Origin: Diphasiastrum complanatum
Lineage: Eukaryota > Streptophyta > Lycopodiopsida > Lycopodiales > Lycopodiaceae
Direction: 5' to 3'
DNA length: 64,000 nucleotides
Assembly (NCBI GenBank): GCA_029204225.1
Contig: CM055095.1
Coordinates: forward strand, 67,109,940-67,173,939
Both the position numbers and the translations under genes were made by a program. Below the pieces are notes generated by a model. It was not told where the DNA came from. It ran no database searches and saw only the letters and a program-made list of their open reading frames with translations. This document shows, in pieces, positions 2,086 to 43,471 of this stretch (position 1 is its first letter; each line of letters begins with the position of its first letter).

Positions 2086-2088
2086 ACT

Positions 2089-2100
2089 TGGTATCAGAGC
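2089..2100 (+). other. Primer-binding site (initiator tRNA-Met)
   Basis: TGGTATCAGAGC is the exact complement of the 3' end of plant initiator tRNA-Met and lies four bases after the LTR end. It primes minus-strand cDNA synthesis of the copia element that follows. Confidence 0.85.
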
Positions 2101-4232: not shown

Positions 4233-4251
4233 AGCGTGAAGAGTGTGATAT

Positions 4252-4263
4252 GCTTTGATACCA
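4252..4263 (-). other. Primer-binding site of a minus-strand copia LTR
   Basis: The minus strand reads TGGTATCAAAGC, a one-base variant of the plant copia primer site, immediately after an LTR end (CTTCA) at 4264-4268. Confidence 0.6.
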
Positions 4264-6945: not shown

Positions 6946-6969
6946 CTCATTTGTGTCAGATGTTGATCC

Positions 6970-8033: not shown

Positions 8034-8189
8034 AGGTTCTTTTCGATCTCTTACAAGCTAAAATCACCATGCCCTTCTAAATAGCCATGACGTATTCCAA
8101 ACCCCTACGGGATGCCATATTACACAGCTCCCAACAGCCTGATGTACCAGATGAGTCATGACGTCCGAAAAATGCTGAAGTACTTCATA

Positions 8190-9600: not shown

Positions 9601-10930
9601 GTAAAAGTTATTGCACAAATACAAAGATGTGTTTTATAAAGAAATGAAGGGGGTTCCTCCTGACGTTGTCGTCCATAGAATCCCATTGTAGGATGGTGCC
9701 ATACCTGTCCGAGCAAAACCTTATCACACTAATCTCACATATCGCGAGAAGATACGAGAAGATATTCAGAAGCTTCTCGATGCTGGTTTCATTTATAAAA
9801 TCAAGCATACCAGTTGGGTATCACCAATTGTGGTGGTACCAAAGAAGAACGGTTAACTCCGTATCTGCATGGATTTAAAAAAACTTAATGATCAAACAGA
9901 GAAGGATCAATTTTCCTTACCTATGACTACACAAGATATGGTAGGAGCATAAGCTTTTAGCTTCCTCGATAGTTTTAGTAGCTGCTTCTTAGTCCAAATC
10001 GCTCCTGAAGATCATTTCAAAATGGCTTTTGTTACAGAGTTTGTTACTTTCGCGTATAACATTATGCCATTCGGTCTGTGCAATGCCCCATCCACATTTC
10101 AAAGGGTGATGCAACGAGCTTTCAAAGATCTGTTGCACAAAAATCTAGAGATTTATCTTGATGATCTTGGTGTGCATTCTTCTCAAGATAAGCATCTCAA
10201 TGCCCTTGAACAAGTGTTCATTTGTTGTCAAAGGTTCAGAATTTCATTGAATCCCGACAAGTGTCAGATCTGGGTTACCCATGGTGTGGTACTGGGCCAT
10301 ATTATTTCTCGAAATGGTATCACCACTGATCCCAAAAATATCAGAGTCATTCTTGAAATGGCCCTACCCGACACAGTGAAAGAAATTTACATCTTTGTGG
10401 GCCACACAGGTTATTATCGAATATTTATAATACACTACGCCGATAAAGCACGGTTAGTATATCAAATCGTTACTGATCCAAGGTGGACAGAGGACCGGAT
10501 TAAATCCTTTGAAGATCTTAAACAGGCTTTAATTACCGCACCCATTCTTCCCGTGCCTAATTATACTAAGGAGTTCCATGTGTATATGGACGCAAGTAAG
10601 TATGCCATTGGCGCTGTTTTAACGCAACCCGAATAATTCAAAAATGATTTTTCCAATCCGCCTAAGCCATCAGCTTGTTCCAGCTGAGGTTAACTAATCC
10701 ACAACAGATCGAGAAACACTAGCAATGGTCTATGTTGTTCAACAATTTCGACGTTATTTGCTAGGCCAGTTTTTTGTTTTCTATACCGACCATCATGCTC
10801 TTCTTTCTATTGGATAAATCTTGCAAAACCGGACGAATTGCATGATGGCTATTGATTATTTTAGAATTCAACTTTCGAGTTATTATTCGGAAGGGATCAC
10901 AACATTTTTTGGCTGATCATCTTTCACGAA
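9601..10930 (+). pseudogene. Ty3/gypsy reverse transcriptase and RNase H
   Basis: RT begins near 9600, with a palm segment at 9840-9900 (KNGXLRICMDLKKLND, stop inside). The longest open piece is 10,022-10,636. It has MPFGLCNAPSTFQRVM, then the catalytic box YLDDLGVHSS, where family members normally have YLDD(I/M)LV, and the thumb motif GHIISRNGI. RNase H follows at about 10,580 (YMDASKYAIGAVL), continues in another frame with FYTDHHALL (10,775-10,800) and ends with HFLADHLSRI (about 10,900). The Asp pair is present but many frame breaks make it inactive. It reads on from the gag/protease region and into integrase. Confidence 0.9.
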
Positions 10931-23390: not shown

Positions 23391-24581
23391 TCAATGATCA
23401 GCAATGAAGTAATAAAGAAGAAAATGCGTTAGGAAGAGAAGCAAGATGCTTTTGGGTTGTATTGAGAAGTGGGGAGAATCAGAAACTGTCTGGTTTGACT
23501 GGTCGGATTGCCGAGCTTGAACATTCTGGACATGTCTGGCTCCATAGAGCTCCTGCGCGCCCATAATATCATCCTGAGTAAGATGAGTCCTGACTTCCTT
23601 GGGGCCGATGCTGGGAAACATGATGGCGGTTTGATCAGATGAGTGCGCAAGGCCTAGGAGGTGGCCTATTTCGTGCACAACCACTGATTGTAAGTCTATG
23701 GCATAGTTGGAAGCTTCTTTATGGACATCTACTGACCAGTACTCGGCACTGTCAAGGTGAAAACGACCATCTTCAGGAGCAAATGCGTGTGCTAGAATGC
23801 CGAGGATGCCGTCGAAAGGATTGTCGTCACCGTGTTCGCCACTTACGAAATCGATCTTGATGTCTGCACTCTCAATGTCACTGATCTCAAAGAAGCTTAG
23901 GGGCACCACAGTAGACCATACCGCAAAGGCCATTGCAAACGCGGATCTTCTTTGTGGCTCTGGAATTCTGAAGTTCGCAAAGCTGGGAGCGAAGGCATAT
24001 GTCAGGTTACTACGAGAGATCCATGAAGGACAGCCAGGAAGGAGCTGGAAGCGCTCCGTACCTGTGAGGTGTGTGAGGCTTTTATTGCTGCTGTTATGGT
24101 TATGGCGCAGATGCATCACAGAGGTTCCATTCACTACATCCTCGCGGCCACATCGAGGCTTAGTTAACTGAGCGATGGTAGCGGCGTCGAGTATTCCTGT
24201 CACAGGCAGGCCAAAGTTCTCTTGATACAGCCTCACCGCAGCCTCTGTGTTATTGTCAAACACATCGCTCGGGTTTGATCCGGCAGGCAGATGCTCATAG
24301 CCAAAGGTTTGGAAATACAGCTTCAGCTTGCTCAGCGCCTGGTGCATCTCTCCTTTGTGCGCATTAAGCAGAGATGCAAAATCCGACCATGCTGATGCTC
24401 CCACGGAGCTTTTTACACTTGAAAGCGTTTCATTAGTCAGGATTTGTGATATTGTTTCCACCTCTACTCCCAAACCCACTTGCACTGCATCAATACTAGT
24501 GCTTATTATCATGATCAAGCTCAACAATGTGCAGAATACCCGCATGCTTCCTACTCTGATCACTTCCTTATCCTTGATCAT
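23391..24581 (-). CDS. Matrix metalloproteinase (matrixin, M10A), secreted and probably GPI-anchored
   Basis: A single uninterrupted frame of 396 residues from ATG at 24,581. Plant matrixins are zinc endopeptidases of the cell surface and wall, usually intronless and of this length. Order of parts: hydrophobic signal peptide (about 13-32); peptidoglycan-binding-like propeptide domain (about 65-140); cysteine switch PRCGREDV (142-149) that keeps the zymogen latent; calcium and structural-zinc loop with HGDDNPFDG and LAHAFAPEDGRFHLD (250-277); active-site zinc motif HEIGHLLGLAH (303-313) with catalytic Glu304; Met-turn Met321 in IMFPSIG; and a C-terminal hydrophobic stretch (about 376-393) after a polar spacer, as in GPI-anchored plant members. 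No hemopexin domain, as expected in plants. All key residues are present, so the gene appears functional. The start is supported by the signal peptide and a TATA box upstream. A second in-frame Met13 could also start translation. Confidence 0.96.
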   Translation of the reverse strand: MIKDKEVIRVGSMRVFCTLLSLIMIISTSIDAVQVGLGVEVETISQILTNETLSSVKSSVGASAWSDFASLLNAHKGEMHQALSKLKLYFQTFGYEHLPAGSNPSDVFDNNTEAAVRLYQENFGLPVTGILDAATIAQLTKPRCGREDVVNGTSVMHLRHNHNSSNKSLTHLTGTERFQLLPGCPSWISRSNLTYAFAPSFANFRIPEPQRRSAFAMAFAVWSTVVPLSFFEISDIESADIKIDFVSGEHGDDNPFDGILGILAHAFAPEDGRFHLDSAEYWSVDVHKEASNYAIDLQSVVVHEIGHLLGLAHSSDQTAIMFPSIGPKEVRTHLTQDDIMGAQELYGARHVQNVQARQSDQSNQTVSDSPHFSIQPKSILLLFLTHFLLYYFIADH

Positions 24582-24659
24582 GTTCTGTAAGCCGAGAGTG
24601 CAGCTGCCGAGCTTTGAGAATAGATTGATCTCCAGCTAATACCCATGATTTCGTTGACT

Positions 24660-24672: not shown

Positions 24673-27165
24673 CGGCAACTGATGACCAAGAATGAACGCC
24701 CATGGCTTATTGATATGAGATACACAAAACTGAGCTGTATAATAGAGGAATAACAGATATACTATAATGCAGCCCAACATATGAATATATACATATCTTT
24801 CATTCATTTGTTGATCTAAATCTAAAGAGACATATATCTTGATCATGACTCAGGATTAAGATCCACAACTAACGCTAGAAGTTTAAGAGTAGCATATTCC
24901 ATACCACCAATAATATTGTAGTCCTTGGTGGGCTCCCACACAACCAAGGGTTAGAACTTAGGAAACACTTGGAAGGGTTGGAACTTGGAAGATATACACC
25001 ATCACCTTGGAGAGATAGTGGTATCAACCACCATCCTATAGTTACACCATGACTTCATGCACATTAAGGCTCATCCAAGAATTTGAGGTGCACACCCACC
25101 TTTTAGATTGAAGGGCCCACCTTTTAAAACTTTCTTATGATATGTATATGGGAAGGTTACCTTTTAAGATTTAAAAATATAAAATAATTTAACCTTTTTT
25201 AAAAAGAATAGTGCGTAATTTTTAAAGAATTTTTTTAAAATTTGACCTACCATAAAGTTTAACTTGTATAGTTTACCTTTCAATGAGAAGGATAGTTTTT
25301 TAGTTTGGCTCTCAAGCAACAAAAAACTGACTTTATTTGAAGGGCAAATAGGCCTTTGGCATGCATTGCAACTTGCATATCAAAACTAGGACTTATTTGA
25401 TATTTTTTGATGAAGCAACTATAGCCATATGTTGTGGGTCTCCATAATTTCAGCGCATGCACGAGTGGGCATGTAGGCATGCATGAGCCCAAGGGGACAT
25501 TGGGGATGGGCCCTCCCTACACAACATAGGTGCCACATGAGGTGCTAAAATTATGGAGAGCCACTACCTTGGACACAAGGGTTTTGTTTCACACACAAGT
25601 GTTTTGCTAGTGTCATGAGGATATCAATAGGTAAGTTTCCTACCAACTCAGGTATCAAAGAATCAGTCCATATGCTCCCAAAAAGCAAATATGCTGGCCT
25701 TATGAAAAAGAAAAAGAAACTTGTGAAAGGTCTTGCTCTAAGCAATGGATGTTAATATTGATAGTGTTTATATTCATTCATGAATGGTCATATTCTACTA
25801 TTTGGCTTCATGCCCCACTTTGCATCTATGACCAAGACTTTAAGTACCTATCATCTACTATAGGTCGGCCTTCAAAATTTTAGGCACCTCTTTAATTGAT
25901 TTTTCACAAACTAAATTGACCAACCTAAACACATTGTATTACCTTTGCAAGCAGGTAAGGCCAAAAAAAAGTTCAATACCTAGTGGTACAATTTAGTCAA
26001 TATCATCCAAGACCTAAGCCAATATCACCCAAGACTTGCATTAAAGTCAAGGAATAAATGCATATCTTGACCTAGCATTTGACTTGTTCTTAATACTCAT
26101 AATTGTTAAACTAAAGTTTTTAATGTACCTAGCTTTTGTCATAAATATCTAATGAAATCCCTTAGACCAAAAGTTTTTACAAACCATTATCCAATATGCG
26201 TCATAAATAGACATTACTATCCCAGCACTAGGCATATTTCCCCTTCCGAAAATCCTTGTGCAACCAAAGCTCGTGGCCATCACCATTTAACCATTCATAA
26301 TGATTACTTAATAACATCCATCAATATTTCTCAAGCACTCACCAACCTTCCTAAAGCCTTGAATGGTGATAGTGCCATGACAATCATAGTTGCTTATATG
26401 TGCATCCATACATGACCAATTAGTGATTTTCTTACACTATGAAAACCCACACATGTTTGGAGAGACTCCTTTCGTAACAAGGTTCATGTGCTATTTGTGA
26501 GTTAGTGAGTGGCTACCTATAAAAGGTATGTGAGCATTGTTGAAATTTGATGGAGTCATGCCCTTTAGAGGTCATTTTGGACATATTTGAAGAGTAATTG
26601 CAATTAGGGGGGTTTAACCATGAAGCTCACAATGTTTCTAAAAGTGTCACATTGACGCCTAATTTCGTATTCCTTACAACGTCAAGACTAGGATCCTATA
26701 TTTGGCTAGTGCCAGCTAGGCTCAAGATGAAAGGCCTACTTTCTTAAATCAAAATTTTTAACGTCTTAAGCCTAGATGAAGGCCTGGCTCGAGGCTGAGC
26801 ACCTATCATGGACCATGGTTTATGACAAAATTTTACAGCAGATTCAATCCCAATCAATCCTGAAAGTGATGGAGGATGCACAAATAAAAGATCTAGATCC
26901 AAACTATGAGCTAGAATCAAGACTAGTTACCAAAACTAGCAAATTTGGCATTTAACTCCACATTAGGCACATAGATTTGATCAAATGAACCAAAGTAAAG
27001 TACAAAAAGCTTCTTAGACCTGTAAACAAGTTCAGAACCTTCCAATCCAAGCAATTAATGCATAAAAACACTCACATCCAATGGATGGAACTCGCCACCA
27101 AAAGACAATGATGATAGAAGTGGAAAAACTCGATTTTTCTTGATAATTTGATGGAGATCCCATCA
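24673..27165. other. Long intergenic stretch, nothing coding recognised
   Basis: About 2.5 kb with no frame that I can support as a gene. Short frames, such as those at 25,280 and 26,152, show no family signature. It probably contains old repeats. Confidence 0.5.
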
Positions 27166-27521
27166 TGCATTTATACATTTCAAGCTCGGATCTGAGCATA
27201 TTAGGGCACCTCTGAACTTATCATACCCTAACCCTAGCATCTAACCTAATAGGTCATTGGATCCACCCTAACTTGGGGTCAAGATCTCGAGATCCCAAAA
27301 CAATGAAAAACATGCTATTTTTAGCTCCTATTTCTCTCTAGCTTATCAAAGCACTATTTGGACTCACTCCAAAGGTGCCACTCATATGCTAGGTTAGGAA
27401 TGAGACTTACAAAGAGTATCCTATGCTATTTGGCACGTGTGACAAGCCACAACATGACCATAATACAATTTACAAGCCATATGACCAAAATTGGTCAAGC
27501 TAGAATTGTGAAATTTTAACA
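27166..27521 (-). repeat. 3' LTR of the compact element
   Basis: 356 bp, TG...CA ends, adjoining the polypurine tract on its right side. Confidence 0.75.
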
Positions 27522-27554
27522 CTCCTTCTCACAATTTAGCTCGATGAGACTATC

Positions 27555-28073
27555 CTAGATCAATAATACATGGATAAAAACAATATAACTTCCAGGTTCT
27601 TGCTTTGTTGAGTGACTATAATCACTCATCATGATAAGAATATGATTTGAGCTCCAAGTTCTCAAATGTAGTGAGAGCTCAATAAAGGTTGTCTTCAAGA
27701 TCCAAGCTTTGTCTTTGGTGGGTTGTTGAATGATCACCTTGGGCTGAAAAATGTGAGTCTCCTCCTCAAAATAAACATGAAAAACAGCAGCTTTCCATAA
27801 GATCCAACTTTTGTTTGAAGCACATACTATCAAAGCTTGATATATCGCCATCTTAACTTTATCCACTAAAACATTGAACTCCAACTTGGCATCCTTCCAA
27901 TGAAGGTCTTCATTCCTTGGAAATTCAAGAGTGAATGGATCACAAGATGAGGCCTTTGAATACATATTTGAAACTCTAATCAAAGTAGTAATGATCACTA
28001 TTTCATCATCATAAGATATAGGATGAAAAACAATGTTCATACTAGCATCATCAAAAGACTTTGTCAAATACAT
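27555..28073 (-). CDS. Single open frame inside the compact LTR element, function unknown
   Basis: 172 residues from ATG at 28,073; the frame also extends seven codons upstream to a GTG. It fills most of the 609-bp interior and ends 33 bp before the LTR. The product has charged and aromatic segments (FPRNEDLHWKDAKLEF, KSWILWKAAVFHVYFEEE). I see no zinc knuckle, DSG, YxDD or DDE motif, so it is not a recognisable gag or pol. It could be a relic of copia sequence, a captured host fragment or a novel frame. It is intact in a near-identical-LTR element, which argues against long decay. Confidence 0.4.
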   Translation of the reverse strand: MYLTKSFDDASMNIVFHPISYDDEIVIITTLIRVSNMYSKASSCDPFTLEFPRNEDLHWKDAKLEFNVLVDKVKMAIYQALIVCASNKSWILWKAAVFHVYFEEETHIFQPKVIIQQPTKDKAWILKTTFIELSLHLRTWSSNHILIMMSDYSHSTKQEPGSYIVFIHVLLI

Positions 28074-28130
28074 GACATGTTTTCTATCAAACACAAAATA
28101 AGATGAGTAAAGGGAGATATGGATAAATCA

Positions 28131-28486
28131 TGCATTTATACATTTCAAGCTTGGATCTGAGCATATTAGGGCACCTTTGAACTTATCATACCCTAACCCT
28201 AACATCTAACCTAATAAGTCATTGGATCCACCCTAACTTGGGGTCAAGATCTCGAGACCCAAAACAATGAAAAACATGCTATTTTTAGCTCCTATTTTCT
28301 CTCTAGCTTATCAAAGCACTATTTGGACTCACTCCAAAGGTGCCACTCCTATGCTAGGTTAGGAATGAGACTTACAAAGAGTATCCTATGCTATTTGGCA
28401 CGTGTGACAAGCCACAACATGACCATAATACAATTTACAAGCCATATGACCAAAATTGGTCAAGCTAGAATTGTGAAATTTTAACA
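28131..28486 (-). repeat. 5' LTR of the compact element
   Basis: Second 356-bp copy, matching 27,166-27,521 along its full length with few differences. Confidence 0.75.
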
Positions 28487-28829
28487 GTTTAAGGCTAAAG
28501 CTTGAGAGCCACACTTTCAATAAATTAAGGTGAGGTCCAAGTGCTATAAGGGCCCTTTGTAAAGATACTTTTTTTGACTTTTCAACTATTCGACGTCCAC
28601 ATGTCCTAATAGTATTTTTACATGTGTGCAAGACTGTAACGGTGTTTGTTGGACAAATTTTTTTACAATTTCCCGGGCATATTTTTAGCCCATTCAAAAC
28701 TCCCGCCGGGTAGAGTCTAGACATGTGATTGGATAATATATTGTTGCCCGTCAGCAAAAGACTGCCCGAGTTTAACTAGCTGAAGTTAAACTAACTTGCA
28801 TGGATGGTTCAACTAGCTGAAGTTATCAA

Positions 28830-30474: not shown

Positions 30475-31680
30475 AGACCCAAAAGGGTCATCATTTGTAC
30501 ACATTGAATGTAAATTTTTGAAATACATATTTTTGAATTGGCCTTTTGTAATTTGTAGAGACAAATTGCTCCTAAGTAATAAAGACTTTCCCAGCTTCCA
30601 ACCCAGATAGACTTTGATGATATAGAATTATCAATGATCAATATTCTTTTAGGATACTGTATGAATTTATTACTTTAATGAATTGAGTAATAGACATTGA
30701 TACATGTAGAACTAAGAATCTTCTATGATTTATGTTTGATGGTAGTATGAACACTGACCTTTGTGTGAAGGGATGTGTAGGTACACACAAACGTACCTAA
30801 ATAATCTGAACAAGAATAAGAAGTCCTTTGGGCTTAAGGACTAATCTCTCTTTGAGGGTATGTGCAGGTACTCGAGAAAGTGCCAAAAGAAGAAAGTGCC
30901 TAGGGTCTGATCACCTAGTGACCTTTTCCACCATGATTGGGGATGGGCAACCTCTAGAAAAAAGGGCCTAGAAATTGATGGACATTATGCAAAAACAAGA
31001 TGGACATATACCTCGGCTCTTCCTTAGGAAGATTGCACTTGGGTGAATTCCCAAATTTTAACCATGTAATATTATATGTAATTAAAAGTCAAGTTGGAAT
31101 CTTGTACCACCTACCTCCCACCTACTTTTCCACATGCATTCTAGGCTATTTGACACCTAGAATGGGACACCCTCCTACACTCTCACTTCATATGCCAAAT
31201 CACCAAAATAACTCTCCCAAGCTAATACACATCACCCATTCACCCTCTCTAACTAATACACCTCATCCATGCACTCCACTTCACCCTAAGTCCAATTGGA
31301 GTCTTCCTCACACCTCATGCACTTGAACTTGACACCTCACTCACTTTGGAAAGACTCTCCACTCTCTACATAAGTGGAAATGTGCCCCTCTACAAGAGGA
31401 TGGAAGGATGTTGCATCCAAACTCTGCCATTTTGTTTTTTGTTGTGTACAGGTGCTTTGGAGAAGAGGATTGAGGCATTACCTCAAGGAGGCTATGTTAT
31501 TTTGTGATTTCGGGATTTTTGGAGCTCAAACCCTCAGATTTCTATCTCTCTTTCACATCACACACAAACACACACACACACACACTCTCTCCCTCTCTCA
31601 CTTTCACCTTCTCTCGAAACCATGGTATGCTCTTGAAATTGTTACCCGTATGTAAGAATGGCTGATCAGTACTTTTGCAA
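30475..31680. other. Intergenic, with a short CA repeat at 31,560-31,585
   Basis: No gene recognised. 31,080-31,330 is rich in C and A (short CACC/CTCA words); 31,560-31,620 holds (CA)n followed by CT-rich DNA. Confidence 0.5.
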
Positions 31681-31684
31681 GTCA

Positions 31685-32090
31685 GGCTATCTGTGGCCTG
31701 TTGTCCATGCATGTCAGATCTAGAGCTTGCATGTCAGATTTGAAGCTTGCATGTCATAGCATCAGTGGCCTATTGTCCATACATGTTAGATCTAGAGCGT
31801 GCATGTCAGATCTAAAGCTTGCATGTCAGATTTGAAGCTTGCATGTCATAGCATCAGTGGCCTATTGTTCATGCATGTCAGATCTAGAGCTTGCATGTCA
31901 GATCTAAAGCTTGCATGTCAGATTTGAAGCTTGCATGTCACACCATGCATTGCCAAATGACCATGCATGTCACTTCATGATTGTTGCATGTCAAGAATCT
32001 ATGAACCCTTATGATTGCATGTCAAGAATCTATGAACCCTTATAATTGCATGACAAGAATTTAAGATCCAACATGATTGCATGTCAGAAA
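31685..32090. repeat. Minisatellite built on GCATGTCAGATCTAGAGCTT
   Basis: About fifteen imperfect copies of an 18-20 bp unit (TTGCATGTCAGATYTRAAGC). They are grouped into higher-order units of about 100 bp that also contain CATAGCATCAGTGGCCTATTG. It decays towards 32,090 into TTGCATGTCAAGAATCTATG copies. Confidence 0.85.
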
Positions 32091-32290: not shown

Positions 32291-32519
32291 AGTCCCCATC
32301 TTGACCCCTCAATGCTTCCGCTATTGTGTGAATGAATCTATGTGATGCAATGTTTTTTGAGTTTTGATTTAAAATCTTAGCTGATTTTCATTAAGTTGAT
32401 TCGAGACTAGCTTTATGTGAACGATAAGCCAATTAAATCTTTTGGCCTTTAAAGAACTTTGGACAGGCGTTCACCCTCGAGTTCACACCTTTCAATAAGA
32501 CCATCTATCTATTTCTCTA

Positions 32520-33520
32520 TATAAATTTCTTTCCATCAGCTCTTTCAAGTGCAAGCTCCCCAGCTTCTTGTTCCATTGTCATCAATGTTGCATTAGAGAG
32601 AAAAATCTTAATCATCTCTTGTTGAAATTCAAATGTCATTTTGTGTGAATTTTGGATAGGTGAACCGCAAATCATCAACAATAGACAAGTTAGACGAATA
32701 CACAAAAAGCAAAAAATCATATAAATAAAATCAGTGTACATTTAAACTCAAATTACTTGACATATATCGACATTTTCATCTTGACTGATGAACCATTCCA
32801 TAAAGCATTTAACATTTTTAATGGCATATCAGCCACAACTGAATGAGTCAACTTGCTGAGAGGACTGAGAATCAAAATACAAAATGTTGATTTCACATTT
32901 TTTTATATGGCAATTTGCATCACGAAAAAAGTAATTGAAAAATTGGTTACATGTGCGTCTATTATCTCTATGTGCTTTGCTACACACAGGGCCTTCGTTG
33001 GAGAATATATCATCATGCTTTTGTACATCTCAATGTCGACATTGAGGTGTGTTGATCTCAAAGAATCCATTCTCAACACCCTTGGATTGCACAAACCGGC
33101 TTCATCCACTCTTAGTGATATAATATGTATAGACCAGTGATGACTGCAATCAACCAAATAGTCAATGATGTGTAAATGAAAAAAATACAAATAAAGCATA
33201 CAATAAAACAACACATACTTTTGACAGTATGGTACAACAAAAATTTCGGTATCGCTTGGCATGGGTCGTAAACATGATGAAGCTGATTGCTCGTCCTTAA
33301 GCAAGTGACAAAAAAATTGAGTAAGCACAAAAACACCTGGAATAGTGTCGCTTTTGTACAACTGAACCCAATAATTGAGTCCAACTTCGACAATTGGGTC
33401 TGTGAGGTCCGAAGACTTATTCGTTAATTCCTTAAAGATAGCAGAATTAAAATAATTCATATATGAGGCCGAATATATATTAAATACAAAGTGACCACCT
33501 AATTTATCTATTTTTTTTAG
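32520..33520 (-). pseudogene. Ulp1/SENP-type (C48) cysteine protease domain, C-terminal part of an H3 fusion
   Basis: Minus-strand frames from about 33,520 carry an N-terminal part (SYMNYFNSAIFKELTNKS, VGLNYWVQLY). IFVVPYCQ follows, and then a 75-nt GT-AG intron (33,144-33,218). After splicing the domain continues HHWSIHIISL, with the catalytic His in HHW, and VLRMDSLRS, with the catalytic Asp codon at 33,065-33,067. The catalytic Cys lies in DSFSCG, codon 32,835-32,837, in the usual Gln-then-Asp-Cys-Gly context, but the next codon but one is TGA. A tail (TYPKFTQNDI, FEFQQEMIKIFLS) ends at about 32,520 after another shift. C48 proteases remove SUMO or related modifiers and are common in plant MULE and CACTA transposons. 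The frames follow directly on those of the histone-like part. Confidence 0.75.
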
Positions 33521-33565
33521 CTATGTACTCGTCAAAAATTATATATTGTTCATAATCAAGAAATG

Positions 33566-34413
33566 TTAGCATGGAATCGATCGAATATTGAGAACTAAAC
33601 TTTTATACACAGTTCCTATTGATTGAGATGGGCTTTCAGGAAAGCGAGCAATTGATTTTGTGATGTATCTATCCAAATCCTCTGTGGTGCATCTGGGCAC
33701 ATCCAAAGGCTGGTCACTATCAAAAGAGTAATCTAGTAAAAAATTTAGACCAGGAGTGACAAGAAGACCCTCTTGAACTTTCAGTGTATCAAGAATTAAT
33801 TTGGTCTGGCCTATCATATGCTCAGTCTCATCTGATAGTAGTAATATTCTTTTAGATGGAGGTGGAGGAGAGGGGGAGTCTTCAGCTTCCACCCTAGACG
33901 ACCCAACTTGATCATGAGTTGGCTGGTCTTCGACTGGCTTGATTTGGCCCTTTTTGGCCCTGGTTCCTGACCTCACTGGCCTTGACTGCTTTCTTTTCCT
34001 CTGATAAGGGGGTCTAACCCTGGGAGCAGGTTGGGGAGGTGGAGGTGCCTTGAACACCTGTTCGTACTGATTCCTCAGCCTGAACACAAGCTCCATATCT
34101 TTGGGCATGATAGTCACATGCTTTGCATGTACAGAAGCAAGCACAATGTCCTCAAAAAACCTAATCCGATAATCTTCATAGGCTGTATGCAAAGCTTCAA
34201 TGGCAGTCACACACATCTCACATCCACGAATAAAGATCTCGTCACATCCCTCAGGTTGGTGGACTTCTGTAGCCTCCTAATATCTCTAAGCCATGGGCGG
34301 GGTTTTCTTCCAGTCCCCCTAGCACGAGATCTAACAGCTGCAGGATGAAAGGATGATGTAGGTTGACCAGCAGACGAGATAGTAGGACACGTGGTTTGTT
34401 TAGTCCTTACCAT
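33566..34413 (-). pseudogene. Histone H3-like domain with Pro/Lys-rich C-terminal linker, N-terminal part of a protease fusion
   Basis: ATG at 34,413 opens with MVRTKQT, nearly the canonical H3 start. A diverged tail follows, then RKPRPWLRDIRRLQKSTNL, matching the H3 RPGTVALREIRKYQKSTEL region (alpha-N). After a shift at about 34,215 and a gap of about 15 residues relative to H3, the second frame resumes with TAIEALHTAYEDY, FFEDIVLASVHAKHVTIMPKDMEL, the H3 alpha-2, loop-2 and alpha-3. The tail lacks most modifiable lysines (K9 and K27 contexts are gone). After alpha-3 comes a foreign linker of about 165 residues: KAPPPPQPAP, basic QRKRKQSRPVRSGTRAKKG, acidic/Pro DSPSPPPPSKR. It ends at 33,566, where a frame shift leads straight into SMLTFLDYEQY and the C48 protease. 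It would make a nucleosome-directed protease if intact. Confidence 0.75.
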
Positions 34414-34648
34414 TCCCTTCCAATATCGCAGACATGCGAGTAGGTCGTAGATGAATTAATCATATGTAGATCCTCGTGTGGCTCCTATTTCACTCAAAGA
34501 TATTTCAATATCGTAGGGGCGCGAGTAGGGACCAAGCCTCTCAGAAAGAAACTAGAAGGTCGCGCGGCTCTGATATTCAGTTTGGGTAATAGAGAGCAAG
34601 AAACAATTCACGAATCTGATAAGCAAATTGTTTTTAATCGCGGTCTCT

Positions 34649-34662
34649 ACTTATATATAGAG
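34649..34662 (-). promoter_or_regulatory. Candidate TATA box of the H3-protease gene
   Basis: The minus strand reads CTCTATATATAAGT, about 240 bp upstream of the ATG at 34,413. Confidence 0.55.
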
Positions 34663-34692
34663 GGATTTTTTATGCATTAAATGAAAAAACAC

Positions 34693-34860
34693 CACGTGCC
34701 AATTTCTGATTGGTGTGTCCTATTAATGATTGCTCCACACATGCGGGATATACGTGTCCAATTTTCAACCACACACGTGCCAATTTTTCATTCGTGTGTC
34801 TTATTAATATTTACTCCACACGTGCGGATATATGTGTCCGATTTTCAACCACACACGTGT
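34693..34860. repeat. Tandem repeat, 80-81 bp unit, two copies plus a partial third
   Basis: CACGTGCCAATTTYTSATTSGTGTGTC, then TATTAAT, ACTCCACACRTGCGG, ATATRYGTGTCC and ATTTTCAACCACA, repeated. It lies between the two TATA boxes. Confidence 0.85.
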
Positions 34861-34982
34861 CACCTATGGATTTGGCCGACATTGCACATAAATGCTTCGC
34901 ACGTGTTACAGGAATGGACGTATCTCAGAAGTGTCGCGTATCTAACAGTGATTTTCGAACGGCTGCGATGAATCTACGGGAT

Positions 34983-34991
34983 GTATATAAG
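34983..34991 (+). promoter_or_regulatory. Candidate TATA box of the divergent plus-strand gene
   Basis: GTATATAAGGG at the right edge of the repeat region, about 340 bp upstream of the ATG at 35,323. Confidence 0.55.
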
Positions 34992-35322
34992 GGCTAAACA
35001 TTGTCATAAAATGTTTTGCTTACTCAGAGATTTTGAAGGCAATATCGCAACCACGCAACTCTACTACTTTTGATCTTATTTGCCAACACTCCCTCGCGTG
35101 CCTACAATATCGGATATTCTCTTTGACTACCCAATATCGCTACCACACGATGCTGCTGCTACTTTCCGATTTTTCCAGCACACCATCGCGTGCCTGCGAT
35201 ATCGTTACATGCTTGTTGCCTTGATGTCGCTGCCACGTGACAATGTCTCTCCAAATCCGAATTTTGGCCATTCCTCGCGTTGTTGCGATATCCAGTATCC
35301 AATTTTCTTTGTCATTTCTAAT

Positions 35323-36806
35323 ATGGAATCTAAAAAGCTGCATAAGTTTCTCTCTAACGTCGGTGTTCAAGACAGGACTGAGTACTTTTCATTTCTTTTT
35401 TGACTTAAATTTGATGTCGATAGATTTGTGCTTGAGCACAAGTCTCACCTATTGGAATTATTCAAAAAGTTTCGGAGTAGCATCCTAGAATTATCTCTTG
35501 TTATTGATGGCCTGAAATTTATTCATTTCCATGAACTGATAGTTGCCCAGCCTGAAGCCAAGCACAAGCATGATAGGAAGTTTACCAAGCTTGACAAGAG
35601 CCTGAAGGTTGTATAATATCATGATCATGCAGGTTTATAGTTGAGGGCATAGCTTTTGTTTTCTTCATATCTGCCTTAATACCTGATGAAGGCCAATCTT
35701 CCAGATCAATTGGTGTTGGTTCTTCAAGTAGAACATCTACTCAGAGATGTACTGTCGATGTGGACAAAAATTTAGAAGACAAAAATTGGGTGATGAGGAA
35801 GAGGCTAGGCTGGCTTCGATGTATGACCCTACTCTGTCACAGTCAATGGTAATGTCTTCTACATAAGGTGTAGAAGAACACGATAAAAGCAAGACACTAC
35901 TTGACATTCCTGTATACCATATGAATAGCCTGCCATATTTTTTATTGAATGATATTGGGGATGTGTTCGACATGAGAGAGGACGAGATCCTATTTGTACT
36001 AGCCAATGCATTGTCAGAATTTTCGGATATAATAGACTTCAATCATGATGATTTAATTGAAGGGATTGACTATGAAGATGAAGGTGGTTGGAAGTTTGGG
36101 GAGCAGGCCTGACAAATTACAAGGCAACAATGTCTAGCCTATGGAGCAAATGCTCCTAGTGAGGAGGAGATCATTGAGTTTCAAAAAAGATATCCTCCTC
36201 CAGAGCAATACGTTTTTTCTGAGGATACGTTTCTTGCTGGGCATGACTTGCATGGAAAAGGATTGTTGGAGTATGACCAACATGACATGGTAATTTTTAT
36301 TTTCTTATTCCATCATAATCATATTTAGCATTGTATTCAATCAAAATCCATCTGAAAATCAAATTGATTACAAATTTTCGTATTTATGTTGCAGGACACA
36401 ATTGAAGTTGATGATTTTGCTACAAGAAGAGGAGGTGCTCGAGGTGTTGTTGGCCAAAAGGATTCAACATTGTGCCATTACCTGAAATGCTTTGTACAAA
36501 ATTAAATTTTATTTACAAGCAGGAACTATAGTAATGGCAATAAAGGCATTGTCCTATTTTTGTGATGGACATAGATATCCTAACAGTACATACAAAATCA
36601 TTCTTGTGAAGAGGGACATAACTATAAAAATATCGGGTTATGTTTCTGAAAATGTACCCAAAAGATCATCTGCTTTAGTAGTGTACGCAAGTTACATAGA
36701 GTTGAGCAAAAGAAGATCGATTGAGCATCTCAATCCATATGAAAGGAGACAATTTCTTCATGACCATACTGCTCAGCTGACCTTTGATACCGATGAGGAT
36801 ATGTAA
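35323..36806 (+). pseudogene. Second gene of the candidate element, product unknown, decayed
   Basis: ATG at 35,323 (MESKKLHKFLSNVGVQDR) opens a frame that is broken by one TGA at 35,401 but runs in phase to 35,616 (DRFVLEHKSHLLELFKKFRS, HFHELIVAQPEAKHKH). Further blocks in phase with each other, apart from TAA and TGA stops, are at about 35,775-36,289: GDEEEARLASMYDPTLSQS, LNDIGDVFDMREDEILF, DYEDEGGWKFGEQA and RYPPPEQYVFSEDTFLAGHD. A GT-AG intron at 36,290-36,394 (105 nt) follows, then DTIEVDDFATRRGGARG. The last block, 36,529-36,806, ends PYERRQFLHDHTAQLTFDTDEDM and is basic then acidic. No known domain is recognised. Its divergent placement from the H3-protease gene across a shared promoter suggests a common element. 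Confidence 0.5.
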
Positions 36807-36959
36807 TGTTTTAATTGTTTTCTATTACGGTGATGAAGTTGAGATATTTCTCCTCAGATATTGAAATGCCTTTTTGAATGAAATGAGATTTGTTAAATAT
36901 TTGGTTTGATATCTAAACTGTTTGTAGAACCATTGAAATAATTGATATAAGTAGCATTT

Positions 36960-39407
36960 CTTTGAATTATATCCTCCATGGTTGGTTGCTCGATGAAAAG
37001 CTCCTCTTGCTTGCCAATGCGATTTCTATACATACATCAGAAATCAAATATATGACGTTGTAGAACAATTTTTGCACAAAAACAAATAATGAATTACCAT
37101 ATAGTGTGTGACAGGATCCTCTCCCCAACATTCTGCTACCGATTTGACAAATATCTCACAATATTTTTGTAAATTTGCAATGTCGATTTTAGATAACTTT
37201 TCTTTTCGCAACATGCCAATCAAATTGTCGAGATTTTGGCATACTGCAGCTTTTTTTAATCGTGTTGCCCCTATCTTCAAAGTCTTTTGATGCTGCAACA
37301 ACGTCTTTCCAAACATTGTATGTCACGGTAGAAGACTTTCCAGTGTGATTGGATAAAAACCTTCTAGCTTTTGCACCTCCAATAGATGGCTTGTTTGAAA
37401 CGTTCCCTAATTTACTCGATAGTTTTTTCACTTTTTTTTATTTTTACATTCCCCTTGTGCAAACCTGCTTTTGAAAGTACTTGCTCTAATCTCTCAATTC
37501 CAATTTTAGAGGTCGATTCAGATTTGGTATTTCAGACATACAAAATATGATTGTAAATCAATTTTTCAATAATTCGTACCTCATCATGCAATGTGCATAT
37601 GTGAACATTGATCAAAGGAATTGCAAGCACACATCCAAAGTTCGAATCCTCTCGATCTCTTGTTGGACCAACTCTTGATCTTGTCAAATTCAAGTCCTTA
37701 CAATTCTTCATACAATACAAACAAGGATGTTTAGTATTTGCCCCATGCGAAACATTATACATACATTTCAGTGTCTTTAAATCACTTGCAAGATGCCATA
37801 AAATTTGAAACGTGCCATAGTTTGGCACATATATTTTGTTTCCACCCATGTGCTCTTCAATAATCTTCACATAATTTGAGGTCGAAAAAATCCACGACAA
37901 GATAGCATGGTCTTCTTTTAAAACCTGAAAAGTAACAAACACATACAAAGTTACGAACATTGACATTAGCAACTTAGGTGATAAAATACAATAACAAGTA
38001 AAATTGAAATATACCTGAAATGCTGCTAACCACCATATTTCATTCTCTGATTGAACACTAAATGATGAATCATTTGCATCATTTTCAGTATTGTTCAATG
38101 CTCTGTTCATAAAGGTGATACTTACCCGTTCCAATTTTTGTCCCTTAACAATTTCAGACTCATCAAGTTTAATAACCAATATTAATTTTCCTTGGACTTC
38201 TCTTTCAAATATTTTGTAATATATAATCATGTAAGCCACTACTTTGTTAATATCCAAAAATAAATTGCTGGACTCATTGTATTCCAATGTTCGACTCTCA
38301 CATGTATACAATTTCTTGATATGAAATGGTTCACCGATAAGCATAGTCATACTCTCATTAAGACAATATCTTGTTTTTTTTTACTCGAAGTGGACGAGAA
38401 AGAGGTAGCTTTCGAATCTTCACATGTGCAAAGTTGTACAATTTTAAACAATAGAGTATATGATTTACGACTAATTCCTGAATCATCACATGCTCCCTTG
38501 ATAACTCTTGCATCCAAGACATGTTGAATGCTCTGTATAATCACTGCAGCAATATCATTCTTAATCCTATCATAACGAGAATTCTTTAACATTTCTTTTG
38601 TAGTTTTTGATGACAATATAGAACCCAAAGATTTTCCAATACTCGTAGAATCTTTATAATGTTCTCTCGCCACCAAAGATGATCTACAAGACATAATAAA
38701 TAATTAAATTAGCAAGTAGTTGAAAAACAAGCACATAAAAACCTAGCAAGCGTGTCATTTGCTCTTTTAATTAATACTTACTTGAATGCTTGAATCCTTT
38801 TCTTCTTGTTTCCACTTCTTGAAGACAGATTATCTATGTCTTTTTTTTGGAAGTCGTTTGCATTTTCATATATTTAATTTTCTCCTGAGAACTTCAGCCT
38901 TCAACAATAGCACTCAAGCTTTCCCTTTTAAAATTCTCAACGTCTCTCAACATAAGTTGACTGGATATTTGAAGATCAATAACAATAGTTTGCAATTCTG
39001 ATATATTGGAGCTCAATTTCGTATTCTCGTATATTTGTTTCTGCAAATTATCTTGAAGTATTGCCTTCTCATTGTTTGTTTGATTCAACAAATACTCCAA
39101 TACTTGTGTTCGCTTCATTGCTTCATACATCCCGTATTGGCTCAACTTTTGACAGTATCCCAACAATCCACTATGTCCATTACACACAAAATTCAATAAT
39201 TGGCCAATAGTTTGAAAGTCCAAAAAACATCATGTACTTGGATCTTTGGGATAAATTGATCCAACTGTCCACAAATCGCTATTTCTACAATTTTTTTTAT
39301 CTAAGTTCTTTCTTACAAGTCTCATTAATCTGACCAGCTTTGGTGTTTTTCTTATAAATTGGAGCACAATCGCGTGGGAGCACAATATGAAGATCAAACT
39401 TTTCCAT
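36960..39407 (-). pseudogene. Spliced gene for a probable RNase H-fold (DDE-type) transposase, family not named
   Basis: ATG at 39,407 (MEKFDLHIVLPRDCAPIYKK). After a shift at about 39,300 follow NSDLWTVGSIYPKD and FLDFQTIGQLLNFVCNG, then a coiled coil (39,120-38,900). Introns with GT-AG ends: 38,684-38,781 (98 nt) and 37,925-38,014 (90 nt, a multiple of three, so the frame reads through). The core has ACDDSGISRKSY (about 38,500); ILVIKLDESEIVKG with an Asp codon at 38,162-38,164; HMGGNKIYVP and ASDLKTLKCMY; CLYCMKNC (37,721 down); and IPLINVHICTLHDEVRIIEKLI (37,600). VWKDVVAASKDFEDRG, with the likely last acidic helix FVKSVAECWGEDPVTHYM, ends near 37,100. Asp, a CxxC pair, a CTLH-x-x-x-RI-x-EK block and a late Glu/Asp-rich helix resemble uncharacterised transposase-like proteins known from diverse eukaryotes. 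Only a few stops and shifts interrupt it. Confidence 0.55.
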
Positions 39408-39593
39408 TATTTCAAAAATCAAACAAACTAAATCATGTAACGAAAAAACGATTCACACGAAACCAAAACAAGCTTGTAAATCATTAAACATGCATGTTAT
39501 ATGATCTACCTTTTAAATGTTTTCAAAGATTTTTGGAGGAAACACCAAATTATCCTCTCCTCCTCCTCCTGATACTGATATCTTCTTGAGAGG

Positions 39594-39872
39594 GTGGATA
39601 AAAGCTTTTTGGTGTGCTTAGGCGGCGTGTGCTTAGTCGACTGTGTGTATTCTCAGATATGGTTAAATATAATCATCAAAGGATGTCTTGTATCAACTTT
39701 TTATGATGAAATGGTAAGTTGTCCAACGATTGACATATTGCGCGATTTTCATTTAGTGGATATTTTTGTAGCTCGCCTCACTAGCCGCGATGGTGGCATA
39801 TCACTTCCTTACATCCCTCTATGGAAACGCTTTAGTGACAGTGATGAATCAACTATCTGCATTGTCATCTGA
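39594..39872 (+). CDS. Small frame of doubtful reality beside the palindrome array
   Basis: About 92 codons without an ATG at the start (GTG first). A TATA-like GGATAAAAGC overlaps its start, so it is unlikely to be translated from there. The later part (ARLTSRDGGISLPYIPLWKRFS) is not low-complexity. No family recognised. Confidence 0.15.
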   Translation: MDKSFLVCLGGVCLVDCVYSQIWLNIIIKGCLVSTFYDEMVSCPTIDILRDFHLVDIFVARLTSRDGGISLPYIPLWKRFSDSDESTICIVI

Positions 39873-40301: not shown

Positions 40302-40580
40302 GCATACTCTCTAATATCACCCTCTGCTCAATATACGATACTAAACACTTATCGGTTTATGTGATAATGTAGCATTGTTTGGTTACTACGGTCTGTTATC
40401 ATTCACAGTCTGGTTCATATTATAACCCAACATCATCGTACTCCAAGCAAATGTATGCTGCCTACTGAGATTTCACAAAGCAAGCAGTTTAGCATACTCT
40501 GTACACTTTATCTAAACGTTTTTACATACTCTTAAACATAGCTATGGACTGGAAAAACTTTCTTTTTGTCGTTATGATAT
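40302..40580. other. Spacer, nothing recognised
   Basis: AT-rich DNA between the palindrome array and a long direct repeat. Confidence 0.4.
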
Positions 40581-41284
40581 AAAGAGTAAACCTTTACGAA
40601 AAAACAACAATGGCAGCCTCCCAAGAAGCCTCGTCTACAAACATTTAGGTATCACTTTTCGTTACCAATTTTTATACAAATTTCACAAAGCACAAACAAG
40701 AAAGGGATGAGCATTTCTTTATATCTACTTTTCCTTAGCACTATTCTCAAAATTTTTATCCAAAAAAAATGACTAAAGTAAAAGATACTACATCCATAAA
40801 GCTGATCAACTAATTGATTCTTTAAGAAACCCTTGTCAAAAACCTTACAATGGGGACTCCAATAAAACGGTCCTAGATAACATGGATATGCATAAGATAC
40901 ATAGTTTCTACGAAAGGGTTAGAATGGCATGGATCTGCCCTAATACCTTGTAGAAACTTTGGAAATCTCTCACTTATAATTGATTATGTCTATCCAAAGA
41001 AATGTCCTTATACCATGGTTGATATATGATTTCGGTATGGCATGATTTTGTGCAAAAAGAATCATACAATCAATCATGGCAAATCTTAAACTTACACTAG
41101 TAAGTGTTACTTTAGACTTCAAGTGAGATACAACTAGAAAGCATGGATATGCTCAGGAGTATGGACAACAGTGCGTGACATACCTTGCTCTGCAAGGGTC
41201 ACTTGGGTTAGCATGGCATGGATTTGCCCTAATATTAGCACACGTGTCCACACCAAGTCTTCTGGCTAAGCAAATTAAAAACGG
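40581..41284. repeat. Long direct repeat, copy 1 (704 bp)
   Basis: Starts AAAGAGTAAACCTTTACG and ends CTAAGCAAATTAAAAACGG. It matches copy 2 along its full length with scattered differences. No clear TG...CA ends. Confidence 0.85.
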
Positions 41285-41859
41285 TTAAAACTTTTCATAC
41301 TCTTTTATTACTAAAAACGAACGGATATGGACCAACTGCCCGTAAGCTGATCAGCATGGCACTCGCCCTGATATGGTGATATAACGGCTTGGCCTATCGC
41401 CAAAACATTGTTTGAATGGGAAGACTGGACTATGTTTTAAATGTTATGCAAAGCTGTCAAGTAGTAAAACTTCTTTTGGACATGAATAACAACTGACACT
41501 CGGCTATGACACATGTATTCCTCACTAAACTAACTTGTGCGGTTGTGTTTTGTGGAATGGTGGCAGGTATCAACTGGACGTCTTGAGAGTGGTTATGCTT
41601 TATGGTGCTTTTTAGTACTGTATTTTAGTTTTCAATTATATTTTACCTTGTTGGATTATGAATAAAGGCTTCAAAAGATTTCAGTCTTGCTTTGTCAAGA
41701 GGAACTAAGTGCAGTCTTGTATCTCTCTCTATGCATCTTGGTGGTGTAAATCCGACTATTCCTTGGTTGAGATAGTACTGAAACCTTTACCTTTTATCCG
41801 ATTCATAAGCTAACAAAGGTCTTTTTTTTATGGTTTAGTCCACAGGATGGTTTCAGGAT

Positions 41860-42204
41860 GCTGCTTCTTTGGATTATGGGGAGCCCCTTCCTCCGCCTAA
41901 CCATTTTGTTCAGACACTGATTTGTTGTATGAAAAAGGTCATTGAGATGCATAATTTTGTCATTAACACTGATAGGGCTACATGTTCTTCTGCTGGACCT
42001 AAGGATAAAATTCTTTGCCTTATTGATCTGCTTGAAACTATTGACTGGGTAAAGATTTATCTTGAGTTTGTTAAGGAGAAAGACTCTCTGAGCTTAGTGG
42101 AAAATCTTTACACTCATCTTAATGATTTTGTTGAAAAATTTGAAGAAGAGGAGCCAAATAGTACATTAGTGGCGAGACCCACTAAGTGCCCAACAAGAAG
42201 CTAG
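41860..42204 (+). CDS. Exon-like open frame of unknown function
   Basis: About 114 codons after an acceptor-like TTTCAG at 41,849, opening FQDAASLDYGEPLPPPNHF and continuing with NHFVQTLICCMKKVIEMHNF and DLLETIDWVKIYLEF. It ends with an acidic segment (DFVEKFEEEEPN) and a basic tail before TAG. There is no ATG near its start, so it would need an upstream exon. The composition looks coding rather than random. It lies between the 704-bp repeats and could be element cargo or a gene relic. Family not recognised. Confidence 0.3.
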   Translation, partial: AASLDYGEPLPPPNHFVQTLICCMKKVIEMHNFVINTDRATCSSAGPKDKILCLIDLLETIDWVKIYLEFVKEKDSLSLVENLYTHLNDFVEKFEEEEPNSTLVARPTKCPTRS

Positions 42205-42347
42205 TTGATATGGGCAATACAAGCCGCATGGATCAAGGGAGAGACTTAATAGAGTTAGCTACCAGCATGATCATGAAGGTGGTGTCGACGAAAATAGTAA
42301 GGACAAAGAGCATGAAATTTTTGAGATAGAGATAGCTCACTAAAAGA

Positions 42348-42655
42348 TGGGGTGTACTCGTAGAGTCACAATAAGCAAAAGTCCCTCATACACATGTCCA
42401 AATGTTATGCCTTGTTCCATAGGAGGGAAAGTTTTTTGGCTAGTGATCATATGTATTTTATTCACATGTGTGTATCAGGACTAAATTTTTCATACTTTAT
42501 TGAAGGATCAAGGGGTGTACTCTTAGAGTCACAATAAGCAAAAGCCCCTCCAACACATGTACAAATGGTATGTTTTGTTCCATAGGAGGGGGAAGTTTTT
42601 TAGCTTGTGAATAAATGTATATATTTATACGTGTGTATCATGACTAGATCACAAC
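42348..42655. repeat. Tandem duplication, unit about 160 bp
   Basis: Two copies of GGGGTGTACTCKTAGAGTCACAATAAGC with following CAAAAG, CCCCTC, ACACATG and CATAGGAGGG words, starting at about 42,349 and 42,512. Confidence 0.8.
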
Positions 42656-42767
42656 GATAGCATGTATAGAAACCAACCCATGATGTTAAATGTTGAGCTT
42701 TTTTGGGTGTTGAGATTTTTGGGTGTTAAATTTTGAGCTTTTATGGGTGTTGTTATGCACAACTAAT

Positions 42768-43471
42768 AAAGAGTAAAACTTTATGAAAAAACAACAATGG
42801 CAGTCTCCCAAGCAGTCTCGTCTACAAACATTCACGTATGACTTTTCGTTATCGATTTTTATACGAATTCCACAAAGCATGAACAAGAAAGGGATGAGCA
42901 TTTCTTTATATCCACTTTTCTTCAACACTACTCTCAAAATTTTATCCAAAAAAAAAATGACTAAAGTAAAAGATACTACATCCATAAAGTTAATCGACTA
43001 ATTGATTCATTAAAAAACCCCTGTCAAAAACCTTATAGTGGGGACTCCAATAAAACGGTCTTAGACAGCATGAATATGTGTAAGATATGCAGTTTCTACG
43101 AAAGGTTAGAGTGGCACAAATCTGCCCTAATACCTTGTAAAAACTTTGGAAATCTCTCACCTATAATTAATTTTGTCTATCCAAAGCAATGTCCCTATAC
43201 CATGGTTGATATATGATTTTTGTATGGCCTGATTTTGCATAGAAACAATCATACAATCAATCATGACAAATTTTAAACTTACCCTAATAAGTGTTACTTT
43301 AGACTTCTGGTGGGATACAACTGGAAAACACGGATATGCTCAGGAGTATGGAGAACAGTGCGTGACATACCTTGCTCTACAAGGGTCACTTGGGTTAGCA
43401 TGGCATGGATTTGTCCTAATACCAGCACACGTGTCCACACCAAGTCTTCTGGCTAAGCAAATTAAAAACAG
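42768..43471. repeat. Long direct repeat, copy 2 (704 bp)
   Basis: Same length and order as 40,581-41,284; the two copies are separated by 1,483 bp. Confidence 0.85.

What the first reader, a model, noticed from the sequence alone, without database searches (positions are those of the whole stretch)
32520..34413. Histone H3-like protein fused to a Ulp1/SENP-type cysteine protease
Seen: a minus-strand frame begins MVRTKQT, carries RKPRPWLRDIRRLQKST and the H3 core word HAKHVTIMPKD, continues through a Pro- and Lys-rich linker and runs, with a frame shift but no gap, into a C48 protease with HHW, RMDSL and DSFSCG. Known: both families are defined by these motifs, and C48 domains occur in plant transposons. 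Inference: the two were one protein, which would place a SUMO-type protease on chromatin. I know of no described gene with this layout.
Basis: partly seen in the sequence, partly recalled or inferred. Interest (0 to 1): 0.92.

Follow-up and report, generated by a model that had tools for sequence, protein, structure and literature searches.

The report
Transposon gene joining histone and protease
A high-copy mobile element in this large, plant-like genome carries a gene whose single protein joins a histone H3-like part to a SUMO-type protease part, an arrangement I found in no paper I searched, and the one in this window is a decayed copy.

Summary
On the minus strand (34413-32517) an H3-like domain, a basic/Pro-rich linker and a Ulp1-type (C48) domain form one gene. 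The window copy is a decayed, end-truncated member of a repeat family: the H3+linker piece matched at least 157 places in the same genome. In sister copies H3 core and C48 share one open frame: L030 (527 codons), L010 (440), and L056 (422), a subfamily 39-66% identical in the two domains. Of 81 H3 places checked, 61 have C48 just downstream on the same strand, none opposite. The H3 core was under purifying selection (dN/dS 0.27 over 25 copies; tail 1.03). The element is about 9 kb, has CATTAGGGGA inverted ends, three genes, and a 19-bp motif array between two divergent promoters. The family triad reads His-Asn-Cys; the window's "MDSL" is private. I found no transposase family in Pfam and no described gene of this layout. 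Best reading, inferred: a transposon-encoded chromatin factor bringing a deSUMOylating activity to chromatin, perhaps against silencing, analogous to Ulp1-bearing VANC/KI-MULE genes. The anatomy is near certain; the mechanism is not.

The parts
32488..39647 (.). Extent of the window copy of the roughly 9-kb repeat element; both ends missing (about 0.2 kb at the high-coordinate end, about 1.5 kb at the low end)
   Evidence: blastn against 16 other copies; L047 has both ends, 788-9782
32517..34413 (-). Gene C: H3-like domain + linker + C48 domain, decayed (frame breaks near 34215 and 33590-33500, stop after SCG)
   Evidence: sister copies
34052..34413 (-). H3-like domain, MVRTKQT start to RLRNQYEQVF, with an 11-residue gap in helix 1 not seen in the other 29 copies aligned
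   Evidence: PF00125, PDB H3, copies
33566..34051 (-). Pro/Lys/Arg/Ser-rich linker, 161 codons open in the H3 frame, then stop
   Evidence: 3 of 20000 shuffles open
32757..33520 (-). C48 (Ulp1-type) region in three exons: 33520-33219, 33143-32951, 32864-32757
   Evidence: PF02902 29.4 bits
33144..33218 (-). Intron 1, 75 nt, GT..AG
   Evidence: same borders with other lengths in L005, L010, L017, L030
32865..32950 (-). Intron 2, 86 nt, GT..AG
34421..35293 (.). Array of 10 sites (at least 13 of 19 matches, two overlapping) of TCGCGTGCCTGCGATATTG in both orientations, between the divergent genes
   Evidence: 7 such sites in the rest of the window; 500 letter shuffles of the region: mean 0.12, max 2; present in other copies
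34650..34657 (-). TATA-box-like TATATAAG upstream of gene C
   Evidence: same place in L034, L038, L047
34984..34991 (+). TATA-box-like TATATAAG upstream of gene B
35324..36806 (+). Gene B, divergent, no Pfam match, decayed here; first frame 353 codons in L039
36900..39400 (-). Gene A (approximate borders), no Pfam match, candidate transposase by position only

Best explanation
Shown: the feature is gene C of a high-copy, roughly 9-kb element with short inverted ends (CATTAGGGGA), which reads like a DNA transposon. Gene C encodes one protein: an H3-like histone fold, a basic linker, and a Ulp1-type cysteine-peptidase domain with His, Gln and Cys kept and Asn at the Asp position. The H3 core was held by purifying selection while the family spread. 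Inferred: the H3 domain docks with host H4 or histone chaperones, or on nucleosomes, and carries the protease-like domain to chromatin, where it strips SUMO (or a relative) from silencing or chromatin proteins, so that the element is expressed and can move. The 19-bp motif array between the two divergent promoters would be the address, bound by gene A or B product or by gene C itself. I put the anatomy (one transposon-borne fusion gene under selection) at about 0.95, and the anti-silencing mechanism at about 0.35.
For: Fusion in one frame in L030, L010 and diverged L056; H3C and linker in one frame in 30 of 30 loci and C48 exon 1 in that same frame in 20 of 30 (window copy included); both domains pass Pfam cut-offs in the window copy and C48 in 3 of 4 further copies; at least 157 H3+linker and 151 C48 matches; 61 of 81 paired on one strand; dN/dS H3 core 0.27 +- 0.04, linker 0.66 +- 0.05, C48 exon 0.66 +- 0.12, tail 1.03 +- 0.07 (25 copies); His 21 of 21, Gln 19 of 19, Cys 20 of 20 where aligned; ends; motif array in 14 of 17 copies. 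Analogy: Ulp1-bearing VANC/KIU genes and motif-directed anti-silencing in VANDAL elements (PMC13317346 passages; PMC5735166 passages; PMC10398659 passages).
Against: I verified no copy with gene C open through all exons: L030 has a stop at the end of exon 2. Its spliced protein gave no PF02902 hit at E 0.01, and L019 fell just under the cut-off (20.3 of 20.7 bits). Asn at the Asp position in 21 of 22 copies may mean weak or no proteolysis. The H3 tail as a whole shows no constraint (dN/dS 1.03). Intron 1 read as codons gave 0.77, not 1, so the linker and C48 values of 0.66 are weak evidence. No transposase family was recognised, no target-site duplication was resolved, no expression data were seen, and the searches outside this genome found no relative of the fusion.
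Confidence: 0.42

Rival explanations
1. Centromere route: the H3 domain derives from, or imitates, CENH3, and the fusion acts on centromeric chromatin (loading, or insertion targeting), where SUMO removal is known to control KNL2 and CENP-A/CENH3 loading.
For: Family H3 cores read LLIP.. and RW at helix 2, as in plant CENH3 (sequences recalled), with NLLIPKAHFNRIVRDVT..VRW; weak sub-cut-off CENP-T_C hits (23.9, 19.2 and 19.0 bits, cut-off 28.1); plant KNL2 deSUMOylation by ULP1d and SENP6 in humans (PMC12903445 passages).
Against: The 60 best PDB rows shown of 173 are all H3 types, none named CENP-A. Loop 1 has no CENH3-type extension, and the score against recalled H3 (214) exceeds recalled Arabidopsis (190) and rice (186) CENH3, with identity about equal (43-44 of 88). 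60 copies on 15 contigs spread over all tenths of contig length (4,3,7,6,10,6,6,4,4,10); centromere places are unknown.
Confidence: 0.2
2. Captured passenger: a transposon picked up an H3 gene and a ULP gene, the pieces were amplified, and they have no function for the element, as with histone H3 in fungal hAT elements.
For: Transposons capture H3 in fungi (PMC6710886 abstract) and ULP domains in plants (PMC2528002 passages); the window copy and L030 are damaged, and most of the top rows show stops.
Against: dN/dS 0.27 in the H3 core; catalytic His/Gln/Cys kept; the same fusion in a subfamily 62% identical over the H3 domain (80/129) and 39% in C48 exon 1.
Confidence: 0.1
3. The C48 part no longer cuts, and acts as a SUMO-binding or other docking module; gene C is a structural chromatin protein.
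For: Asn replaces Asp in 21 of 22 copies, also in diverged L056; C48 dN/dS 0.66 is weaker than the H3 core's.
Against: Cys 20 of 20, Gln 19 of 19 and His 21 of 21 are kept where aligned, and papain-type enzymes use Cys-His-Asn (recalled).
Confidence: 0.2
4. Chance neighbours: a decayed H3 pseudogene next to an unrelated C48 transposon fragment.
For: The window copy alone has frame breaks between the parts.
Against: Same-frame joins in L030, L010, L056; 61 of 81 pairs, 0 on the opposite strand.
Confidence: 0.01

Closest known systems
KI-MULE / VANDAL elements with Ulp1-carrying VANC (KIU) genes
   Same: Plant DNA transposon with a Ulp1-type domain in an accessory gene; several genes; short motif arrays in non-coding parts
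   Different: No MULE transposase match in Pfam, short inverted ends, and the Ulp1 domain is joined to an H3 histone fold; 'histone' occurs 0 times in the review PMC13317346 that describes KIU
CACTA-ULP elements of grapevine and rice
   Same: DNA transposon with inverted ends carrying a ULP1-like region
   Different: Tnp2 not found here by Pfam; ends read CATTAGGGGA, not CACTA; H3 domain added
Histone H3 captured by hAT elements in Pseudocercospora and relatives
   Same: A mobile element amplifies an H3-like sequence to high copy
   Different: Fungal, no protease part mentioned in the abstract read, copies inactivated by RIP; here the H3 core was under selection and is part of a larger protein
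Host histone H3 / CENH3
   Same: Full H3 fold, MARTKQT start, VTIMPKD
   Different: About half of core residues differ, fused to C48 by a long linker, and repeated genome-wide

Membership tests
Histone H3 (PF00125) | Profile match over the curated cut-off | tested here: met
   36.1 bits window; 88.2 bits L030; cut-off 26.4
Histone H3 (PF00125) | Complete fold with tail start ARTKQT | tested here: met
   L030 residues 1-129 align to an H3 chain end to end, E 5.5e-25; the window copy lacks 11 residues
Centromeric H3 (CENH3) | Closer to CENH3 than to H3; longer loop 1 | tested here: inconclusive
   Mixed residues; loop not longer; scores favour H3 (with recalled plant sequences)
Peptidase C48 (PF02902) | Profile match over the curated cut-off | tested here: met
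   Window 29.4, L017 29.9, L009 27.4, L005 22.7; but L019 20.3 and L030 not listed at E 0.01; cut-off 20.7
Peptidase C48 (PF02902) | Catalytic His, Asp, Cys and oxyanion Gln | tested here: not met
   His 21/21, Gln 19/19, Cys 20/20 but Asn in 21 of 22 at the Asp place
Peptidase C48 (PF02902) | Cleaves SUMO or a relative | not testable with these tools
   needs an assay
VANDAL / KI-MULE (Mutator-like) | MULE transposase in the element | tested here: not met
   Six-frame Pfam scan of L039 500-9700 at E 0.01: only Histone; copies are decayed and split by introns, so a diverged one could be missed
VANDAL / KI-MULE (Mutator-like) | Array of a short motif in non-coding parts | tested here: met
   19-bp motif, 4-9 sites in the intergenic part of 14 of 17 copies
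CACTA | CACTA ends and Tnp2 | tested here: not met
   Ends CATTAGGGGA; no Tnp2
DNA transposon (cut-and-paste) | Inverted terminal repeats at sharp ends | tested here: met
   10-bp match of left and right ends in L047; right end with one change in L046
DNA transposon (cut-and-paste) | Target-site duplication | tested here: inconclusive
   ATAT ambiguous in L047, none seen in L046

The most novel reading that the evidence does not exclude
A clan of DNA transposons encodes its own H3-type histone, kept by selection over deep divergence and fused to a chromatin-directed SUMO-type protease (and in other members to gene A-like parts), so that the element builds or edits the chromatin on its own promoters: a mobile element that carries a private histone.
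Probability: 0.3. Interest if true: 0.95.

Novelty: new variant of a known kind. Interest (0 to 1): 0.85.

Why it matters
Transposons are known to carry Ulp1 domains whose role is unknown, and VANC proteins show that transposons encode anti-silencing factors. A selected H3-Ulp1 fusion suggests what such a Ulp1 domain may be for, namely SUMO removal on chromatin, and offers a single protein in which to test it. It would also be a case of a mobile element keeping a histone under selection.

Tried and rejected
Rejected: (a) that the missing lysine next to H3K4 in the tail marks a silencing-proof histone: 25 of 30 copies have a lysine there (MARTKQTARPKS type), so that loss is a trait of this and a few copies. 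(The rest of the tail is poor in lysine in L030 too; not pursued.) (b) That His in HAKHV is a Sin-type nucleosome-loosening change: 22 of 30 copies have Arg, 6 Trp, 1 His, 1 Gln, and the two papers looked into gave no R116 passage (from the listing). (c) All motif sites in one orientation: the 8-mer looked so, the full 19-bp motif runs both ways. (d) Structure models of the H3+linker frame and of gene A were low confidence (mean pLDDT 41.0 and 29.6) and were not used. (e) A blind scan for inverted ends and duplications in the window found nothing above its controls; this copy lacks both ends. (f) Protein collection: H3+linker, none of 253 candidates at E 1; full read-through, one hit among 5153 candidates, a predicted CSE4-like H3 of Lipotes, E 1.3e-3; H3 region in 274-873 aa proteins, none of 61. 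Viral contigs and genome contigs: none confirmed. (g) Ten paper searches (searches had other aims) listed no H3-Ulp1 fusion gene that I could recognise from titles and abstract starts; the library holds only CC-licensed PMC papers, and of papers opened I read only passages, or outline and abstract (PMC6710886).

Full report
Observation. On the minus strand of 32520-34413 the H3 words and the C48 words are there. The frame holding HAKHVTIMPKD passes PF00125 by itself (36.1 bits, cut-off 26.4), and a read-through from MVRTKQT aligns to histone H3 over its length (E 3.1e-13). The protease part shows no Pfam hit as read. Removing two GT-AG introns of 75 and 86 nt gives PF02902 at 29.4 bits (cut-off 20.7), with a weak SENP2 match over the part up to HHWSIHIISLR (E 0.08). 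A codon-usage scan shows the linker and the C48 part mostly in the same frame from about 34220 to 32960, broken near 33545. The linker's 161 codons stay open in 3 of 20000 dinucleotide shuffles.

What it belongs to. The window lies at G000:C4:67109940-67173939 of a 1.74-Gb assembly. That it is a plant is my inference from genome size, Copia/Gypsy-like reading frames and an M10 matrixin gene; the species is not known to me. The H3+linker frame matched 157 places (150 of 5313 candidates scored) and a C48 piece 151 (150 of 5021 scored), so both counts are lower bounds. Of 81 H3 places that I copied from the head of the list, 61 have a C48 place from a hand-copied part of the list within 1500 bp downstream on the same strand, median gap 71 bp, and 0 on the opposite strand; the other 20 may have C48 rows that were unlisted or not copied.

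Fusion in sister copies. In 30 loci with 1.5-kb flanks (window copy included), the second half of H3 and the linker lie in one frame in 30 of 30, the first half of H3 too in 27, and C48 exon 1 follows in that same frame in 20 of 30; in 9 it is in another frame and in 1 (L013) it was not found. Same frame does not mean free of stops. L030 has one open frame of 527 codons from before MARTKQT through the H3 core, linker, C48 exon 1, the open intron 1 and exon 2; L010 has 440 codons from the H3 core on, and L011 has 326. A second query (recalled Arabidopsis CENH3 core) found 13 H3-like places at 60% identity without stops and 137 other H3-like frames at 46-56% (150 of 5526 candidates scored), many open for 300-434 codons. 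I fetched three of these. One, L056, has one open frame of 422 codons from before MARTKQT through C48 exon 1, followed by HWSMHIIS..KMNSL and QQEDGHSCGW in later exons. Its C48 exon 1 is 39% and its linker 27% identical to the window's, and its H3 domain is 62% identical to L030's (80/129). So the fusion predates a deep split inside this genome. L055 has H3 and C48 pieces too, and L057 has no C48 in the stretch held.

Selection and catalytic residues. Over 25 copies (5 near-duplicates dropped of 30), pooled pairwise dN/dS with jackknife error is: tail 1.03 +- 0.07, H3 core 0.27 +- 0.04, linker 0.66 +- 0.05, C48 exon 1 0.66 +- 0.12, intron 1 read as codons 0.77 +- 0.10. The intron value shows that 0.66 is weak evidence; the H3 core value is strong. 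Decay after insertion pushes values towards 1. The triad reads His 21 of 21, Asn 21 of 22 (the one Asp is the window copy), Gln 19 of 19 and Cys 20 of 20 among copies with the position aligned; 2-3 more per position had no aligned letter. C48 passes the cut-off in 3 of 4 further copies (29.9, 27.4, 22.7; L019 20.3), but the spliced L030 protein was not listed at E 0.01.

The element. Sixteen further copies of 9.9 kb were compared. A left end was located in 8 of them: 7 begin CATTAGG, L038 GATTAGG; the flanks before them differ except that L039 and L045 share theirs. Right ends of L047, L048 and L046 read CCTCCCCTAATG, CCTCCCCTAATG and CCTCCCCTAACG, giving a 10-bp inverted match CATTAGGGGA and an imperfect continuation. 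L047 has both ends and is 8995 bp long, with a stretch of about 0.45 kb missing against L034. The target-site duplication is unresolved. A 62-nt left end matched 40 places (40 of 154 candidates scored). Three genes: A (no Pfam match), B (divergent, no Pfam match), C (H3-C48). Between B and C lie two TATA-like boxes facing outwards (window, L034, L038, L047) and 4-9 sites of a 19-bp motif at 14 or more matches (14 of 17 copies, none elsewhere in those 9.9 kb; L035 and L041 have 9 and 5 sites at other coordinates, L048 none). The window copy runs from 39647 to 32488 and lacks both ends.

How it most likely works. Shown: a repeat-borne fusion gene whose histone core was selected. Inferred: chromatin docking by the H3 part, SUMO-directed action by the C48 part, and help to the element's own expression, by analogy with VANC proteins, which bind short motif arrays and remove silent marks (PMC5735166 and PMC10398659, passages), and with Ulp1-carrying KIU genes of unknown Ulp1 function (PMC13317346, passages). 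A centromere route is the main rival, given CENH3-like residues (recalled) and the SUMO control of KNL2 (PMC12903445, passages), but H3 scores are better and copies are spread along chromosomes. The Asn in the triad leaves it open whether the domain cuts.

Novelty. Ulp1 capture (PMC2528002, passages) and fungal H3 capture (PMC6710886, abstract) are known. A gene joining both was not recognised in the listings of ten searches of the CC-licensed PMC library nor in three protein-collection searches; subscription papers and repeat databases were not searched, so the claim is limited.

Noticed in passing
L055 1-1207 (+), G000:C7:53543700-53546000: One 402-codon open frame joins a gene A-like stretch (GISREAYATILKLIREAF..) to an H3 core and the start of a C48 domain; it may be a deletion copy or a real three-part fusion.
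   Followed up: partly
L058 (reverse strand) 616-1788, G000:C17:8897200-8899000: A 391-codon open frame joins a gene A-like N-terminal part (GLLGYCQAM) to an H3 core, and no convincing C48 match was found in the roughly 1.9 kb held downstream (L057): perhaps another transposon family with a histone domain.
   Followed up: partly
whole genome G000: A CENH3-like query gave 137 H3-like frames beyond 13 H3-like places at 60% identity, many open for 300-434 codons, so H3-bearing repeats look more varied than the window's family (three fetched).
   Followed up: partly
window 31675-32086: Tandem array built on TGCATGTC units just outside the low-coordinate edge of the element copy.
   Followed up: no
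window 40579-43423: About 635-bp stretches repeated at 2187-bp spacing, 86-90% identical, near the high-coordinate edge of the element.
   Followed up: no
window 27162-28492: Direct repeat of roughly 360 bp at 965-bp spacing, 96-100% identical.
   Followed up: no
window 23391-24635 (-): Open-frame matrixin (M10, E 6.6e-48) with a peptidoglycan-binding domain, probably a host gene.
   Followed up: no
window about 37028 (gene A/B side): Against several copies the window element is 92-94% identical on the gene A side and mostly 85-92% on the gene B/C side, changing near one point; this may be recombination between subfamilies.
   Followed up: no
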